Shown here: one piece after another, positions 50,979-58,515 of the stretch | How the letters are laid out: every line of letters begins with the position of its first letter | Position numbering within the stretch: the stretch's first letter is position 1 | Position numbers and translations under genes: made by a program | DNA from: Mesorhizobium loti | GTDB lineage: Bacteria; Pseudomonadota; Alphaproteobacteria; Rhizobiales; Rhizobiaceae | NCBI GenBank assembly: GCA_014189435.1 | Contig: CP050293.1 | Span: 3,415,001-3,479,000, forward strand | Length of the DNA: 64,000 nucleotides | Direction of reading: 5' to 3' | Notes under the pieces: generated by a model | Told to the model about the DNA's origin: nothing | The model's database searches: none | Seen by the model: the letters and a program-made list of their open reading frames with translations, nothing else

Positions 50979-52163
50979 ATGGCGAAAGACGGCAGCGAGC
51001 GCTCCAGCGGCGGGATGGGCATCAACACGCGGCTTGCCCATTCGGGCAACAATCCGCATGACTATTTCGGCTTCGTCAATCCGCCGGTGGTGCATGCCTC
51101 GACCGTGCTTTATCGGGACGCGGCTTCGATGGCGGCACGCAGCCAGAAATACACTTACGGCACGCGCGGCACACCGACGACCGATGCGCTTGCCCACGCC
51201 ATAGACGCGCTGGAAGGCTCGGCCGGCACGATCGTGGTGCCGTCGGGTCTTGCGGCGGTGACCGTGCCGCTGCTCGCCTTCGTGTCGTCGGGCGACCATC
51301 TGCTGATCGTCGATACCGTCTATCACCCGACCCGCAACTTCGCCGACACGATGCTGAAGCGGCTGGGTGTGGAGGTCGAGTACTACGCCCCCGATCTCGG
51401 TGCCGGCATCGCTGCGTTGATCAAGCCCAACACCAAGGTGGTGTTCACGGAATCGCCGGCCTCCAACACATTCGAGGTGCAGGACATCCCGGCCATCGTC
51501 AAGGCGGCGCACGCCGCGGGCGCCATCGTCATGATGGACAACACCTGGGCGACGCCGCTGTATTTCCGTCCGCTCGACCACGGTGTCGACATCTCGATCC
51601 ATGCGGCGACGAAGTACCCGGCCGGCCATTCCGACGTGCTGCTTGGCACGGTGTCGGCCAATGAGGACTGCTGGAAGCATCTTTACGAAAGCTTCTGCAC
51701 GCTTGGCTGCTGCGCCGGGCCCGACGACGTCTACCAGGTGCTGCGCGGCCTGCGCACCATGGGCGTGCGTCTCGAACACCATCAGCGCAGCACGCTTGCA
51801 ATCGCCTCCTGGCTCGAGGGCCAGAAGGGCGTGGCGCGCGTGCTCCACCCTGCCCTTCCCAGCCATCCGGACCACGATCTGTGGAAGCGCGACTTCTCCG
51901 GCTCGAGCGGCATCTTTTCCATCGTGCTTGCCGGCGGCGGCCAGAAGCAGCAGCACGCCTTCCTCGACGCGCTGCGGATCTTCGGCCTCGGCTATTCCTG
52001 GGGCGGCTATGAGAGCCTTGCCGTGCCGGTCTGGCTCGGCGACCGCGTCGTTGCGAAAGCGCCCTATGAGGGTCCGTTGATCCGCCTGCAGATCGGGCTC
52101 GAGGATGTCGACGACCTGAAGGCCGATATTTCACGCGGCCTGGCCGCCGCGGCGGCTGCGTGA
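50979..52163 (+). CDS. metC: Cystathionine beta-lyase
   Basis: A 394-residue PLP enzyme of the Cys/Met metabolism family: YTYGTRGTPTTDAL, substrate-binding SGLAAVTVPLLAFVSSGDHLL, and the PLP lysine in ISIHAATKYPAGHSD. The conserved Tyr and Arg region is present, and the sequence follows rhizobial cystathionine beta-lyases. It converts cystathionine to homocysteine, pyruvate and ammonia in methionine synthesis. AAGG precedes the ATG at 50979. Single gene. Confidence 0.92.
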   Translation: MAKDGSERSSGGMGINTRLAHSGNNPHDYFGFVNPPVVHASTVLYRDAASMAARSQKYTYGTRGTPTTDALAHAIDALEGSAGTIVVPSGLAAVTVPLLAFVSSGDHLLIVDTVYHPTRNFADTMLKRLGVEVEYYAPDLGAGIAALIKPNTKVVFTESPASNTFEVQDIPAIVKAAHAAGAIVMMDNTWATPLYFRPLDHGVDISIHAATKYPAGHSDVLLGTVSANEDCWKHLYESFCTLGCCAGPDDVYQVLRGLRTMGVRLEHHQRSTLAIASWLEGQKGVARVLHPALPSHPDHDLWKRDFSGSSGIFSIVLAGGGQKQQHAFLDALRIFGLGYSWGGYESLAVPVWLGDRVVAKAPYEGPLIRLQIGLEDVDDLKADISRGLAAAAAA

Positions 52164-52208
52164 GGAGCTGCCGACGTTACTAAAAGAATCTGCGGGTCAA
52201 GCGCACCT

Positions 52209-53324
52209 TCAAACAGCCAAAAGCATGTCTGCCACCGTGGTTTCGTCCCACAGCCGGCCGGCGGCTATTTCGTCGACCTTGCCGTGGCGGTCGACGAGCA
52301 TCAATTCCAGGCGGTGTCGGTTGACGGTGTTTTGACCGTAGCCGACTCCGAGCTGCAAAGCGGTTTGGATCGGCTCGAAGGCTCCCACCGTACGGAGCAG
52401 TTGGCAGAAGCCAGCAAATGGGAATTCGCGGTCATCACCATAACGGCGCAGACGAGGCGGGTCATCGTAGGCGGGGTCATAGCTGATTGCGGCGACAAGG
52501 ACGTCATTTGCGCGATGCCTTCGCCCCAACTCATCACAGACACGCCCGAGCTGGCTGATTGTCCTGGAGCATTTGTCCGGGTTCATGCACCGCGTGTAGA
52601 AAAATGCCAACAATGCGGGGCGCGCACCGAACAAGTCGCCGACGGTCATACGGACGCCGTCCTGGTTCTCAAGCAGCACGTCGCGGATTCCAGCCAGCGT
52701 ACGCGCTACCGGGCGCGCTCCAGAAACGGGAAGAGCGGCGGGGCCTGCGCAACATGCCCCTCCTCCAATCCTTCCCAGTGCTTCATCGACGAGATTCATC
52801 ATATCGCTGGACAGATGGGGCCCGGCCTGCGCATCGCGGCTCAAGACCCGTAACTCCGACCGGCCATCGGGGGATGCCGCCAGGGCCTCGATGGTTTCCG
52901 CGACCGCCGTACGGCCACCGAACTCAGGAGTGGCTGGGTAGTTTTCGAGGTCGACTATCTCATCAATCTGACGAACTCTGTCGAGTGCCTTGCCCAAAAG
53001 CGAGGCCGTCTCCTGGGGCACGGCCGATGCGCGCCGCACGACCCTTGCAGCGGCGGCGATGCCATAGGGATCGATACTCGTTTCCAGTTCTTGAAGAGCA
53101 AACGGCACGAGGGTGTCGGCCAAGCCGCGTTCAGCAAGTCCTGCCATGACAAAGGCACGAAGCCGTTCAGCTTCGACCGCGCCCCTGCCGCGGTAAAGAG
53201 GGGCATCTTCCCGCAGGAGCGCAAGCAGCGACCCGTCACAGCCGCAATGGACCTCCGATGACGCCAACAGCGCCAGAGCCGCATTGAGAGGGTCTCCAGA
53301 TGATTGTTTGAGGTCACGCCCCAT
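52209..53324 (-). CDS. HEAT-like/SCO1-type copper chaperone, predicted
   Basis: A 371-residue protein. Residues about 1-185 are helical and resemble HEAT-like repeats of the next gene's product; residues about 205-371 form a thioredoxin-like SCO/SenC domain: LLAFFYTRCMNPDKCSRTIS with Cys246 and Cys252 (five residues between), and His337 in NRHRLELMLVDRHG, the copper ligands of SCO proteins. No signal peptide or membrane anchor is present, unlike normal SCO1. It ends a three-gene operon beginning with tyrosinase, so delivery of copper to that enzyme is the likely role. The ATG at 53324 is used; TTG 53339 is possible. Confidence 0.8.
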   Translation of the reverse strand: MGRDLKQSSGDPLNAALALLASSEVHCGCDGSLLALLREDAPLYRGRGAVEAERLRAFVMAGLAERGLADTLVPFALQELETSIDPYGIAAAARVVRRASAVPQETASLLGKALDRVRQIDEIVDLENYPATPEFGGRTAVAETIEALAASPDGRSELRVLSRDAQAGPHLSSDMMNLVDEALGRIGGGACCAGPAALPVSGARPVARTLAGIRDVLLENQDGVRMTVGDLFGARPALLAFFYTRCMNPDKCSRTISQLGRVCDELGRRHRANDVLVAAISYDPAYDDPPRLRRYGDDREFPFAGFCQLLRTVGAFEPIQTALQLGVGYGQNTVNRHRLELMLVDRHGKVDEIAAGRLWDETTVADMLLAV

Positions 53325-53401
53325 GCTGCCGCCACCCAATGTGAACCCGAAAACAAACAGGTAGTCCCGCGTGCGCCCAGTCCATTTGAACCCCCAGGCG
53401 A

Positions 53402-54151
53402 CTACGGTCGGGTCAGCCGATCCGTCGCGCCTTTCACGGTCGCCTTTATTTCCCCGAAGTCACCGTGATCCGCCAGGATACTTCTCGCATTTGTCTCGAA
53501 TTCGCCTGGATCGAGATTCCGCAAGGCCACGGCGCTGGCCCGCCGCACAGCACTAAATTCGGTCTTGTCTGTCATCAGCTCCGACAACAGATTCTTGGCG
53601 CTTGGATCTGATCCAAGAACCCGGGCAGCCTGCTCACGCGTATGAACATCGGTGCTGCTTTTGAGGAGATCGCGCGCCAGAGTGGAGATCGAGCCATGAT
53701 CGTCGCGCGCCAGCAGGCCGAGCGCAACCGCCGGAGATACCAGGGCAGTGCCTGCCCCCTGCAAGCCATCCATCAGCTTCTGCCGGGCGAAATCATCCTT
53801 CAGGTTAGCCAGGATATCGAGTGCCGAATGCCGCAACTCCGCGTCGTCGGCGCTCGTAGCGGCTGTGCGCAACGCAGCGAGATATTTTGCGCGGTATGGA
53901 GCAAACCGGGCGCCGAGGAAGGTGCCAGCCTGCAGAAATTGAAGCGCAACCAGCCGGGCTTCCTCATCCAGCTTGGGGTCGGCAAGCTGCTTTATGGCCT
54001 CGTCCCAGTTCTCGCCGGAAACAGCCGCGCGAATATCCGGAGTATCCGCCCCGACCACGACTTTCGCACTGAAGTCGGAAACACGGGCATTGGATGCAGC
54101 CTTGGCGTTGAGTTCGGCCTCGACTTGACGGCGATACTCTTTGACGTTCAT
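53402..54151 (-). CDS. HEAT-repeat protein of the tyrosinase operon
   Basis: A 249-residue soluble, helical protein. Repeating helical pairs such as DEEARLVALQFLQAG, DAELRHSALDILANLKDDFA, TREQAARVLGSDPSAKN and SAVRRASAVALRNLDP look like HEAT/armadillo-type units. There is no catalytic motif. HEAT proteins act as scaffolds for protein binding. The start overlaps the tyrosinase stop by four bases (ATGA), indicating balanced production. It may hold the copper chaperone and tyrosinase together; that is inference. Confidence 0.8.
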   Translation of the reverse strand: MNVKEYRRQVEAELNAKAASNARVSDFSAKVVVGADTPDIRAAVSGENWDEAIKQLADPKLDEEARLVALQFLQAGTFLGARFAPYRAKYLAALRTAATSADDAELRHSALDILANLKDDFARQKLMDGLQGAGTALVSPAVALGLLARDDHGSISTLARDLLKSSTDVHTREQAARVLGSDPSAKNLLSELMTDKTEFSAVRRASAVALRNLDPGEFETNARSILADHGDFGEIKATVKGATDRLTRP

Positions 54152-55449
54152 GCCACGATCGCTCCCGCATTGAGTTCGAACGGAACGTCATCGTAGTCGA
54201 AGCCAAGCGATTCCGTTCCGTGAACACCCTGGTAGTCTACCATGTCGGCGACTTTTGGGTGAGGACCTGGAAGCGTCCCGGTGCGCGCGGGAGGAAACGA
54301 GCCTCGGGGCGGTGGAAACGTTGGCCGAGGTGGCTTTCTTGATCCATTCCAAGGCCACATCGTATCGCCGAGCTTGTGCCCAAGATCGTTTGGCGGCCGC
54401 TTCGGCCCGGCGAGCGAGTAGCTATCGGTGCTGTTCACATCGTGACGCCGATTCAACCACTGCCAGAACGCCCACAGCCGGTCCACATTGGCATGGAGCA
54501 GAAAAAACAAAGGATCCTTGGCGGCTGTCGGCACAGAGCTTATTGGGCCGCGAAAGCTTGTATGGGCGTTGCCGTGGGGGGCGCCTTCCAGATCTCGAAA
54601 GTCGGCATAGCTGGTGCCGAGCTTCATGGTGTCATCCTGAGAGATTACCCAAGGCTGCGGCCCTGTCGGCGTCGGCACACTCTGCGGGGGAGCGTTCACG
54701 ATGTTGTATCGCGGCCGGCGTTCAATCGGATCGGAGCCATCCGTTTTCCAAAACTCCAGCGGATGCCCGTTCGGGAACTGGATGACATCGCCTGCCATCG
54801 GATTTTGCGGCGGCATTCCCAGGAAGGCCGGTGCAAAAAGGGCCGCGGCTGGTTCGTCGAAGCGCCAATATGGGAGCGCTACCGTATCATCAACATCTTG
54901 GAGTTCACGCTCCAGGTCGAGAAGATAGGCCCGATGCCACGGCGGAAATGCCGGGAAGCCATGTGCCTCATCCGCCGACAATGCGACATGCATGTCACGA
55001 AAGGCCTTAAAAGGGCCAAGTCCGGCATCGTTGAGCTTGCCGATAGCCAGCAGGAAACGGTCCCGCTCCGCGGCCGTGAGCTTTACAGCGTTCTTGCGGA
55101 CCCGCACCATCAGCTCACGCCGGCCAACGCTTGCTCCGGCGGCAACGGCTTCAATAACGGCGTCGCCGTAGCCGAGGCTCGGCTTTTGAAACTCACCGGC
55201 AACCCAGAAGGTGACCTTTGTGCCGTTTGTTGGCAGTCGCAGTTGTAGCTCGCTCAGCCCAGCGTCACTGCGGGCCTTGTCGAATACGACACGGCCTCCG
55301 TTTGCCGACCCGCCATTGCGCAAGGTCACATCGACTTCGCCGACCGCCCCCTCGGCATTTGTAATCTGTGCCGTTGCGGCAACTGGAGTCCAAGTCAAGA
55401 AAGTACGACCGTTCGGTTCAGTCGTGCTCAATTTTATTTCTACAATCAT
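54148..55449 (-). CDS. Tyrosinase/polyphenol oxidase with N-terminal beta domain
   Basis: A 433-residue type 3 copper oxidase. CuA ligands are His154 (RDMH), His163 (EAHGF) and His172 (PWHRAYLLDLE); CuB ligands are His292 and His296 (PHGNAH) and His319 in KDPLFFLLHANVDRLWAFW. An unusual N-terminal region of about 110 residues looks beta-rich and precedes the catalytic core. No signal peptide or twin-arginine motif is present. It would oxidise phenols to quinones, as in melanin formation. First gene of the operon with the HEAT and SCO-like proteins. The ATG at 55449 is used; TTG 55470 is possible. Confidence 0.92.
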   Translation of the reverse strand: MIVEIKLSTTEPNGRTFLTWTPVAATAQITNAEGAVGEVDVTLRNGGSANGGRVVFDKARSDAGLSELQLRLPTNGTKVTFWVAGEFQKPSLGYGDAVIEAVAAGASVGRRELMVRVRKNAVKLTAAERDRFLLAIGKLNDAGLGPFKAFRDMHVALSADEAHGFPAFPPWHRAYLLDLERELQDVDDTVALPYWRFDEPAAALFAPAFLGMPPQNPMAGDVIQFPNGHPLEFWKTDGSDPIERRPRYNIVNAPPQSVPTPTGPQPWVISQDDTMKLGTSYADFRDLEGAPHGNAHTSFRGPISSVPTAAKDPLFFLLHANVDRLWAFWQWLNRRHDVNSTDSYSLAGPKRPPNDLGHKLGDTMWPWNGSRKPPRPTFPPPRGSFPPARTGTLPGPHPKVADMVDYQGVHGTESLGFDYDDVPFELNAGAIVA

Positions 55450-55685
55450 CCGACACCGTTGAGTGCGCAAGACTTCGATAGAACTACACTATCCCCTAAC
55501 TTAAAAATTACAAACCCCTTCTTGCATACCTCGAAGCAGCGAGGGTCAAGGTCTACCGCGGCAGCGTCGCGGGAATTTCATTTCCCCAGATGACCGTTTT
55601 GAGGATCGATTTGGCTTTCCATTTCGGCAGCGAGTTGTCATTGGCTCGTTTGCCAAATGATCTCCCGAGAGAGTTCCCGACCACC

Positions 55686-56747
55686 ATGGCCTTCCGCCTT
55701 TTTGTTCCCATTCTTGCCGGCGCGACGCTGCGCGAGCGTCTCGTCGCCTGTATCGGCGCGACGATCGGCATTGCGCTCACCGGGGTGATCGCCAGCCTCG
55801 TGCTCGGCAACGGTCCGCACGTGCCGTTGCTGGTGGCGCCGATGGGGGCGTCGGCGGTGCTGCTGTTCGCGGTGCCGGCCAGTCCGCTGGCGCAGCCATG
55901 GTCGATCATCGGCGGCAACACGATATCGGCACTGGTTGGCGTGATCGTGGCGCATTTCATCCACGAAACCGCCCTTGCCAGCGGCATCGCGGTGGCATTG
56001 GCCATCGCCGCCATGTCGTTCACGCGCTGCCTGCATCCGCCAGGCGGAGCGGCCGCGCTGACCGCGGTGCTGGGTGGGCCCGCCGTCATCAGCGCCGGCT
56101 TCCTGTTTCCATTCGTGCCGGTGGCGTTGAACTCGATCCTGCTGGTGGCGCTCGGCTACGGCTTCCACAGGCTGGCCCGGCGCAATTATCCGCATGTGCC
56201 GGCTGCAGCACCTGCCAACAGCCACGGCACCGTCGATCCACCGGCACAGTCGCGCGTCGGCTTTCGATCCGAAGACATCGATGCAGCACTTGGCGCACTC
56301 GACGAGACGTTCGATATCGATCGCAACGATCTCGACCGACTGCTGCGGCAAGTCGAATTGCAGGCGATGGTGCGCGCGCACAAGACCCTTCTGTGCGAGG
56401 ATATCATGTCGCGCGATGTGATCTCGGTCGACGCGCACACCTCGGCCGACGCGGCGCGCCAATTGCTGCTTGACCATAACATCCGTACCTTGCCGGTCGT
56501 CAACGCCGAGGCAAGGCTGGCAGGCACCGTGGGGTTGCGGGAACTGACCCTGGCCTCCGGCACGGTTGGATCCGTGATAACGCCCGCGGCGACAGCAGCC
56601 GCCGGTTTCACCGCCATGGGTCTGCTGCCCGTGCTCACCGACGGCCGCAGCCATGCCGTCATCATTGTCGACGACGACAAGCGGATTCTCGGGCTGATCA
56701 CCCAGACCGATCTCCTGGCGGCCACGGCGCGCCTGCAGGCTGCCTGA
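55686..56747 (+). CDS. HPP-family membrane protein with two CBS domains
   Basis: A 353-residue protein. About four or five helices form the HPP domain with its signature in FTRCLHPPGGAAALTA (residues about 115-130), followed by a linker and two CBS domains (EDIMSRDVISVDAHTSADAA with RTLPVVN, and VGSVITPAATAAA with GLITQTDLL). HPP proteins are implicated in nitrite transport in chloroplasts and cyanobacteria; CBS pairs bind adenine nucleotides, so activity may track energy state. The start MAFRLFVPILAGATLRERL matches family N-termini; an in-frame ATG at 55590 is the alternative. Confidence 0.88.
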   Translation: MAFRLFVPILAGATLRERLVACIGATIGIALTGVIASLVLGNGPHVPLLVAPMGASAVLLFAVPASPLAQPWSIIGGNTISALVGVIVAHFIHETALASGIAVALAIAAMSFTRCLHPPGGAAALTAVLGGPAVISAGFLFPFVPVALNSILLVALGYGFHRLARRNYPHVPAAAPANSHGTVDPPAQSRVGFRSEDIDAALGALDETFDIDRNDLDRLLRQVELQAMVRAHKTLLCEDIMSRDVISVDAHTSADAARQLLLDHNIRTLPVVNAEARLAGTVGLRELTLASGTVGSVITPAATAAAGFTAMGLLPVLTDGRSHAVIIVDDDKRILGLITQTDLLAATARLQAA

Positions 56748-58206: not shown

Positions 58207-58515
58207 ATGCCAAAACGCCATCTGTGGATTGCGTTGATGCTGGCCGCCGGTATCGTTCCGGCGAAAGCTGAAACCATCCAGGTCACCATCGACAGGCTGG
58301 TGTTCTCGCCAGCCACCGTCGAGGCGAAGGTCGGCGACACGATCGAGTGGGTGAACAAGGATGTGTTCGCCCACACGGCCACCGTGAAAGGTAGCTGGGA
58401 GGTGATGATCCCGCCGAAGAAATCCGCAAGCCTGACATTGAAGGCCGCGGGACCGGTCGACTATTTCTGCCGCTTTCACCCCAACATGAAAGGCCGCTTG
58501 GTGGTGGCGCCCTGA
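58207..58515 (+). CDS. Cupredoxin (amicyanin/pseudoazurin-like)
   Basis: A 102-residue periplasmic blue copper protein: signal peptide ending near residue 21 (KAE), VFSPATVEAKVGDTIEWVN, first copper His in FAHTATV, and the C-terminal ligand loop YFCRFHPNMKG with Cys, His and Met. All four type 1 ligands are present. It should carry electrons or bind copper in the periplasm. It follows the DUF4142 gene by 11 bases. Its last 40 bases overlap the end of the convergent enoyl-CoA hydratase gene, which is unusual. Confidence 0.92.
   Translation: MPKRHLWIALMLAAGIVPAKAETIQVTIDRLVFSPATVEAKVGDTIEWVNKDVFAHTATVKGSWEVMIPPKKSASLTLKAAGPVDYFCRFHPNMKGRLVVAP

What the first reader, a model, noticed from the sequence alone, without database searches (positions are those of the whole stretch)
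52209..55449. Tyrosinase operon with its own SCO-like copper protein and a HEAT scaffold
Tyrosinase, a HEAT-type protein and a HEAT/SCO fusion are consecutive, the first two overlapping. Streptomyces tyrosinase uses the unrelated caddie MelC1 for copper loading; here a thioredoxin-like copper protein (Cys246, Cys252, His337) may do this instead. All three lack export signals, which is odd for SCO. Together they could be a cytoplasmic copper-insertion system not described before.
Basis: partly seen in the sequence, partly recalled or inferred. Interest (0 to 1): 0.74.

Follow-up and report, generated by a model that had tools for sequence, protein, structure and literature searches.

The report
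Tyrosinase with dedicated SCO-like copper partner
Three neighbouring genes (a copper oxidase that seems to stay inside the cell, a helical repeat protein and a relative of the SCO copper chaperones) travel together through very different bacteria, which suggests a private copper-loading kit for the oxidase.

Summary
The trio is a real, mobile cassette. A genome-wide scan keyed on the SCO protein returned 28 loci in five phyla (three are the seeds); all 28 carry tyrosinase, HEAT and SCO in that order. In 72,556 plasmids the tyrosinase and SCO queries separately hit the same six records, side by side. The SCO domain keeps Cys, Cys and His in 29 of 29 rows, but as CX5C instead of CX3C. Its predicted fold is SCO. 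Window tyrosinase and HEAT protein have no cysteine, so the SCO protein cannot be their disulfide partner. Two Bacteroidota fuse tyrosinase to HEAT; 6 of 33 SCO proteins carry a membrane domain with a CPxC motif. Three exported relatives of the tyrosinase have no SCO gene nearby. Best reading: a copper-loading system for a cytoplasmic type-3 copper oxidase. Copper transfer is inferred, not shown. No paper on the trio was found.

The parts
54148..55449 (-). Tyrosinase-family type-3 copper oxidase, 433 aa, no visible export signal, no cysteine
   Evidence: Pfam PF00264 1.5e-31; six Cu histidines H154, H163, H172, H292, H296, H319 kept in 29 of 29 rows; 0 Cys
55120..55449 (-). N-terminal ~110-residue beta domain of the tyrosinase, shared with exported relatives
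   Evidence: alignment A3; beta strands 2-117 in the model of relative L071
54148..54151 (-). 4-nt ATGA overlap of tyrosinase stop and HEAT start (translational coupling likely)
   Evidence: sequence; the same -4 overlap in 8 of 28 loci
53402..54151 (-). HEAT-repeat protein, 249 aa, no cysteine
   Evidence: HEAT_2 1.7e-7; 18 of 27 family rows have no Cys; fused to tyrosinase in L059 and L071
52209..53324 (-). SCO-like protein, 371 aa: helical N-terminal domain plus SCO/thioredoxin-fold domain, no visible export signal
   Evidence: SCO1-SenC 1.4e-9; model pLDDT 85.5, pTM 0.78; nearest PDB folds are Sco proteins
52767..53324 (-). Helical N-terminal domain of the SCO-like protein (HEAT not shown)
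   Evidence: helices between residues 12 and 186 in the model; no Pfam family; 0.8% in hhalign with the HEAT partner
52749..52754 (-). Cys-Cys pair (residues 191-192) in the linker before the SCO domain
   Evidence: a CC pair before the motif in 23 of 29 rows, 1.2 expected from shuffles
52569..52589 (-). CMNPDKC motif, Cys246 and Cys252 (CX5C; canonical SCO is CX3C)
   Evidence: both Cys in 29 of 29 rows and in the 4 plasmid proteins read
52314..52316 (-). His337, the third expected copper ligand
   Evidence: 29 of 29 rows; its stretch is of lower confidence in the model (mean pLDDT 59 for residues 331-340)

Best explanation
The three genes encode a cytoplasmic type-3 copper oxidase and its dedicated maturation pair. 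The SCO-like protein holds copper on Cys246, Cys252 and His337 and hands it to the tyrosinase. The HEAT protein, probably made by translational coupling with the tyrosinase and sometimes fused to it, holds apo-tyrosinase and SCO protein together or shields the open active site. In some relatives a C-terminal membrane domain with a CPxC motif ties the SCO domain to the inner face of the membrane, a possible copper source. Shown: gene order, conservation, ligand residues, SCO fold (predicted), absence of Cys in the window partners, the fusions. Inferred: copper binding, transfer, complex formation, cytoplasmic location.
Against: No experiment. CX5C is not the CX3C of canonical Sco proteins; copper binding by CX5C is untested. 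Some bacterial tyrosinases load copper without a helper (PMC10526336, passages: vsTyr and bmTyr). The stretch with His337 is less well predicted. The linker Cys pair is missing in 6 of 29 rows and the membrane domain in 27 of 33, window included. ResA and PrxQ chains lie close below the Sco chains, and the weakest Sco entries are tied with them. The cassette is rare: order and phylum searches found only the own copy.
Confidence: 0.6

Rival explanations
1. The SCO-like protein is a thiol redox or peroxide-handling enzyme that protects the cell or the oxidase from quinone and H2O2 made in the cytoplasm, with no role in copper loading.
Confidence: 0.2
2. The trio is a multi-subunit oxidase for a specific, perhaps peptide or natural-product, substrate; the SCO and HEAT proteins are structural or substrate-binding subunits and copper loading is spontaneous.
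For: HEAT proteins often bind proteins or peptides (recalled). In Paraburkholderia caribensis the trio lies beside methyltransferase, phytanoyl-CoA dioxygenase and octopine/nopaline dehydrogenase genes. Three of 28 loci have a small WxYRSFxN protein beside the trio.
Against: No common further gene stood out in the 28 neighbourhoods as read by eye (not searched systematically). A subunit role does not explain the invariant C, C, H set.
Confidence: 0.15
3. The SCO-like protein withholds or senses copper to keep the cytoplasmic tyrosinase inactive until needed (a regulator or copper thief), the reverse of delivery.
For: The same ligand set would serve; a permanently active cytoplasmic tyrosinase looks harmful (inference), and Pfam finds only the central domain in the window tyrosinase.
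Against: The constant gene order and the CPxC membrane domain of some relatives fit supply better than removal; no result here excludes it.
Confidence: 0.05

Closest known systems
SCO1/SenC (Sco) copper chaperones of cytochrome c oxidase, e.g. Bradyrhizobium ScoI (PDB 4wbj)
   Same: Fold, Pfam SCO1-SenC, the two Cys aligned with those of Sco chains; a distal His, aligned only very weakly
   Different: CX5C (CMNPxKC) instead of CX3C; extra helical N-terminal domain; no visible export signal; partnered with a tyrosinase. Two other Sco proteins of the same genome, L085 and L086, are canonical CPDVC with a hydrophobic N-terminal stretch by eye
Streptomyces MelC1/MelC2 caddie-tyrosinase operon
   Same: A tyrosinase gene linked in one operon to an accessory protein that supplies copper (PMC3817396 and PMC11608171, passages)
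   Different: None of the three window proteins matches the caddie family PF06236 at E up to 1 (the accession is); Streptomyces tyrosinase is secreted by Tat, this one shows no export signal
Bacterial tyrosinases without a caddie (Bacillus megaterium, Verrucomicrobium spinosum)
   Same: Same catalytic domain and fold
   Different: These work without a helper protein (PMC10526336, passages); here two accessory genes accompany the enzyme in all 28 loci found
Exported relatives of this tyrosinase (L042, L044, L083)
   Same: Share the N-terminal domain (L042, L044); L042 and L044 are the nearest branch in the tree (L083 was not in it); also followed by a conserved, weakly HEAT-like protein
   Different: Hydrophobic N-termini and no SCO-like gene in the stretch read
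MerC mercury transporter (only for the membrane domain of 6 relatives)
   Same: Several TM helices with paired Cys; Pfam MerC 19.7 bits for L055's domain alone
   Different: Below the family cut-off of 27.6 bits; 1 of 5 domains scanned scored better than E 0.01; absent from the window

Membership tests
Type-3 copper protein (tyrosinase family) | Tyrosinase central domain above the family cut-off | tested here: met
   PF00264 110.9 bits, cut-off 22.6
Type-3 copper protein (tyrosinase family) | Six copper-binding histidines | tested here: met
   29 of 29 rows incl. window
Type-3 copper protein (tyrosinase family) | Monophenolase and/or diphenolase activity | not testable with these tools
   HisB1+1 is Gly in 24, Asn in 3, Ala in 2 of 29 rows; by PMC11608171 section 15 (read) this residue alone does not settle the activity
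SCO1/SenC | SCO fold and family score | tested here: met
   38.4 bits, cut-off 22.8; Sco chains are the best structural matches
SCO1/SenC | CX3C motif (recalled as the canonical one; seen in L085, L086) | tested here: not met
   CX5C in 29 of 29 rows; so a divergent SCO-like subfamily, not a canonical Sco
SCO1/SenC | Distal His ligand | tested here: met
   His337 in 29 of 29 rows; its alignment to the His of ScoI is very weak (a stretch of -2.4 bits)
SCO1/SenC | Exported or membrane-anchored with the domain outside | tested here: not met
   no hydrophobic N-terminus in any of 29 SCO rows or 4 plasmid ones, hydropathy only; 6 of 33 have a C-terminal membrane domain, with the SCO domain predicted inside by charge
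SCO1/SenC | Copper binding and delivery | not testable with these tools
   needs protein work
MelC1/MelC2 caddie system | MelC1 (PF06236) partner | tested here: not met
   no match among the three proteins at E up to 1; other genes of the window were not scanned for it
MelC1/MelC2 caddie system | Helper required for tyrosinase copper loading | not testable with these tools
   this is the proposed resemblance in function only
HEAT-repeat protein (middle gene) | HEAT_2 above cut-off | tested here: met
   31.8 bits, cut-off 27.7
HEAT-repeat (N-terminus of SCO protein) | HEAT family score or profile similarity to the HEAT partner | tested here: inconclusive
   helical model; no Pfam match in the window; hhalign 0.8%
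MerC (membrane domain of relatives) | MerC family score | tested here: not met
   best 19.7 bits, cut-off 27.6, of 5 domains scanned

The most novel reading that the evidence does not exclude
A complete cytoplasmic copper-insertion line for a type-3 copper enzyme: copper crosses the membrane through a CPxC membrane domain (fused in some relatives, supplied by another protein elsewhere), is taken by the Cys-Cys linker and the CX5C/His SCO domain on the inner face, and is inserted into a tyrosinase held by a HEAT scaffold. It would be a SCO-type chaperone that works in the cytoplasm and on a non-respiratory enzyme.
Probability: 0.3. Interest if true: 0.85.

Novelty: new variant of a known kind. 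Interest (0 to 1): 0.72.

Why it matters
Most bacterial copper enzymes, and the Sco chaperones, are described as lying outside the cytoplasm (PMC3817396, passages). A conserved, mobile cassette with a cytoplasmic copper oxidase and its own SCO-like partner would add a new route of copper loading, a new job for the SCO fold, and a practical helper pair for making active tyrosinases. The trio is small, occurs in named cultured strains and can be tested directly in E. coli.

Tried and rejected
Chance neighbourhood: rejected, the trio recurs in 28 of 28 loci and tyrosinase and SCO stand side by side in 6 of 6 plasmid records. Disulfide exchange between SCO protein and its partners: rejected for the window, because tyrosinase and HEAT have no Cys. 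The SCO gene as the cell's ordinary cytochrome-oxidase Sco: unlikely, the own genome has three other SCO genes, two of them canonical (the script did not pick out the third, L084). A fourth conserved gene: a small WxYRSFxN protein was found in only 3 of 28 loci and not in the window. A stand-alone copy of the membrane domain beside the other trios: none among the open frames of the 28 loci and the window. Docking of HEAT on tyrosinase from the natural fusion L071: pTM 0.59, arrangement not usable. A joint alignment of separate tyrosinase and HEAT rows went wrong and was not used (A5). A HEAT profile rebuilt from 29 rows was contaminated by fused rows, so its hits are disregarded; a clean profile was used. 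Sigma-70 promoter scan of 52000-55800: none found. The first genome-contig scan with the single sequence found nothing; the alignment found 28. Profile searches of 297 order and 398 phylum genomes returned only the own copy, so the cassette is rare. The structural matches listed span residues 200-371 and say little about the N-terminal helical part, which was not predicted alone.
Full report
What is there. On the minus strand of the window lie, in order of transcription, a tyrosinase (54148-55449, 433 aa), a HEAT-repeat protein (53402-54151, 249 aa) and an SCO-like protein (52209-53324, 371 aa from its ATG). The first two overlap by ATGA; the ATG of the third lies 77 nt after the second. Pfam gives Tyrosinase (1.5e-31), HEAT_2 (1.7e-7) and SCO1-SenC (1.4e-9), all above their cut-offs. 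The window belongs to an 8.33 Mb genome in three contigs. Same-genus genomes G112 and G049 have contigs of the same length as Mesorhizobium sp. CU3 and Mesorhizobium sp. STM 4661, so the genus is Mesorhizobium (inference).

Is the trio conserved? In the genus the full-length tyrosinase type (E 1e-50 or better) occurs in 4 of 146 genomes searched. Three of these (own, G112, G049) also have the SCO protein at E below 1e-40; 13 further genomes have only weak SCO matches (E 6e-7 to 7e-4), probably ordinary Sco proteins. The fourth tyrosinase (G106, locus L042) is an exported form without SCO. In the class, 5 of 385 genomes had a tyrosinase match at 1e-15: own, G146 with the trio, G182 exported, and G451 and G152 of another type; the last three show no SCO hit in the stretch read. 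An alignment of four SCO proteins (A1) was then used to scan the genome collection: 72 stretches matched a pattern, 28 encode a relative by tblastn, giving 28 loci. All 28 hold tyrosinase, HEAT and SCO hits on one strand in this order; in L063 the tyrosinase is split over frames. The HEAT-SCO gap is -26 to 18 nt, measured to the first possible start codon. The organisms span Alphaproteobacteria, Variovorax, Bacteroidota, Nostocaceae, Microbacteriaceae and a Bryobacteraceae MAG. The scan keyed on the SCO protein, so it shows that the SCO proteins found are next to the pair; it does not by itself show the reverse.

The reverse was tested in another collection. Of 72,556 plasmid records, the tyrosinase query hit 6 at E 1e-15 and the SCO query hit 6 at E 1e-8; the six accessions are the same and the places adjacent. 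The cut-off of 1e-15 confines this to near relatives of the window tyrosinase; more distant bacterial tyrosinases are not tested. Two pairs of records come from one species each with almost equal scores, so this is about four independent cases. The HEAT query hit 4 of the 6; in one B. barranii record it was found by profile. I looked at the annotation of 4 of the 6: tyrosinase family protein, HEAT or hypothetical protein, SCO family protein in each. Against exclusivity: exported relatives of the tyrosinase (L042, L044, L083) stand without SCO. A profile search with six tyrosinases over 346 family genomes gave 2 matches at 1e-30, own and the exported G1141. SCO profile searches over 297 order and 398 phylum genomes returned only the own copy: the cassette is rare and patchy.

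Evolution. A tyrosinase tree of 35 rows puts the 28 trio rows (27 loci and the window; L063 left out) on one side of a branch (support 84/91), with the two exported forms in the tree (L042, L044) as nearest relatives. Inside, Methylobacterium groups with Microbacterium, and Mesorhizobium STM 4661 with Bradyrhizobium nitroreducens and Phaeobacter, so the cassette moves between lineages; 5 of the 6 plasmids are called conjugative. Protein distances of the three partners correlate (tyrosinase-SCO 0.79, tyrosinase-HEAT 0.92, HEAT-SCO 0.87; 23 rows, six loci dropped because of fusions or mixed frames; none of 2000 permutations as high). This test is not corrected for shared ancestry, but it fits inheritance as a unit.

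Why copper delivery rather than thiol chemistry. The window tyrosinase and HEAT protein have no cysteine, and the same holds for both partners in six loci (window, L050, L051, L053, L054, L068). The SCO protein therefore cannot act on disulfides of its partners there; metal transfer, or chemistry on small molecules, remains. The six tyrosinase histidines are kept in 29 of 29 rows, so the enzyme should need copper. No hydrophobic N-terminus is seen in the trio proteins, except in the long frames of the tyrosinases of L068 and L069, where the hydrophobic stretch precedes the start that matches the other members. The three exported relatives do have hydrophobic N-termini and no SCO gene. This association of location and SCO is what a cytoplasmic copper supply would predict, though it rests on few branches.

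Fusions. In L059 and L071 tyrosinase and HEAT are one protein, which argues for a physical complex. In L055, L057, L059, L060, L071 and plasmid L080 the SCO protein continues into a hydrophobic domain with the motif PKCPxC: 6 of 33 SCO proteins examined, and not in L079, L081 or L082. The hydropathy scan finds four helices in L055, L059, L060 and L071, three in L080 and two in the domain of L057; by alignment I take it as a four-helix domain. Basic residues lie before helix 1, around loop 2 and in the tail, few in loop 1 (cut at fixed offsets), so the SCO domain would face the cytoplasm. The carriers in the tree are the Bacteroidota and the Variovorax-Bryobacteraceae branches. Similarity to MerC is weak (19.7 bits against a cut-off of 27.6 for the best of 5 domains). 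That the motif passes copper is a guess.

Known background. Two reviews and a structure paper describe bacterial tyrosinases as loading copper through the caddie MelC1 or without help, and one of them Sco proteins as periplasmic helpers of cytochrome oxidase (PMC3817396, PMC11608171, PMC10526336: passages, and section 15 of PMC11608171). In PMC11608171 the words Sco1 and HEAT repeat do not occur in the main text. Searches for tyrosinase with SCO, SenC, HEAT repeat, metallochaperone or copper insertion found no description of the trio. These were search listings, some capped (one search listed 12 of 147, 20 of 29); one paper on Frankia metals (PMC4531530) holds tyrosinase, SenC and heat and was not opened. 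Subscription journals and preprints are not in the library.

Verdict. The trio is real, conserved and, as far as searched, undescribed. That it loads copper into a cytoplasmic oxidase is the best reading (0.6), resting on conservation and on the residues, not on an experiment. It resembles the MelC1/MelC2 arrangement in logic but not in parts, and its SCO protein is a divergent member of the SCO fold that fails two features of canonical Sco (CX3C, export).

Noticed in passing
L058:3951-4367, L059:3863-4267, L064:3449-3874: A small (134-141 aa) protein with a WxYRSFxN start stands beside the trio in 3 of 28 loci; no Pfam family for the L058 copy at E up to 0.1.
   Followed up: partly
L042, L044, L083: Exported relatives of the tyrosinase are followed by a conserved exported protein with weak similarity to the HEAT partner (hhalign 80% for L044/L083), and in L042 and L044 preceded by a ~400 aa protein (48% identical between the two) without Pfam family, near cytochrome-c-like genes.
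   Followed up: partly
G000:C2:56125-56739 and 401914-402726: Two further tyrosinases, very alike and of a very different type, lie on the 453 kb second contig of the same genome.
   Followed up: no
L082:5821-7407: On a Bradyrhizobium barranii plasmid the tyrosinase reading frame is broken and insertion sequences lie nearby, while the SCO gene is open.
   Followed up: no
L080:1-5500: In Paraburkholderia caribensis the trio sits beside octopine/nopaline dehydrogenase, methyltransferase and phytanoyl-CoA dioxygenase genes, possibly a biosynthetic cluster.
   Followed up: no
window 58207-58515: A small predicted exported protein that looks like a cupredoxin (by eye, no search made) follows a sigma-factor-like gene and another small exported protein on the plus strand.
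   Followed up: no
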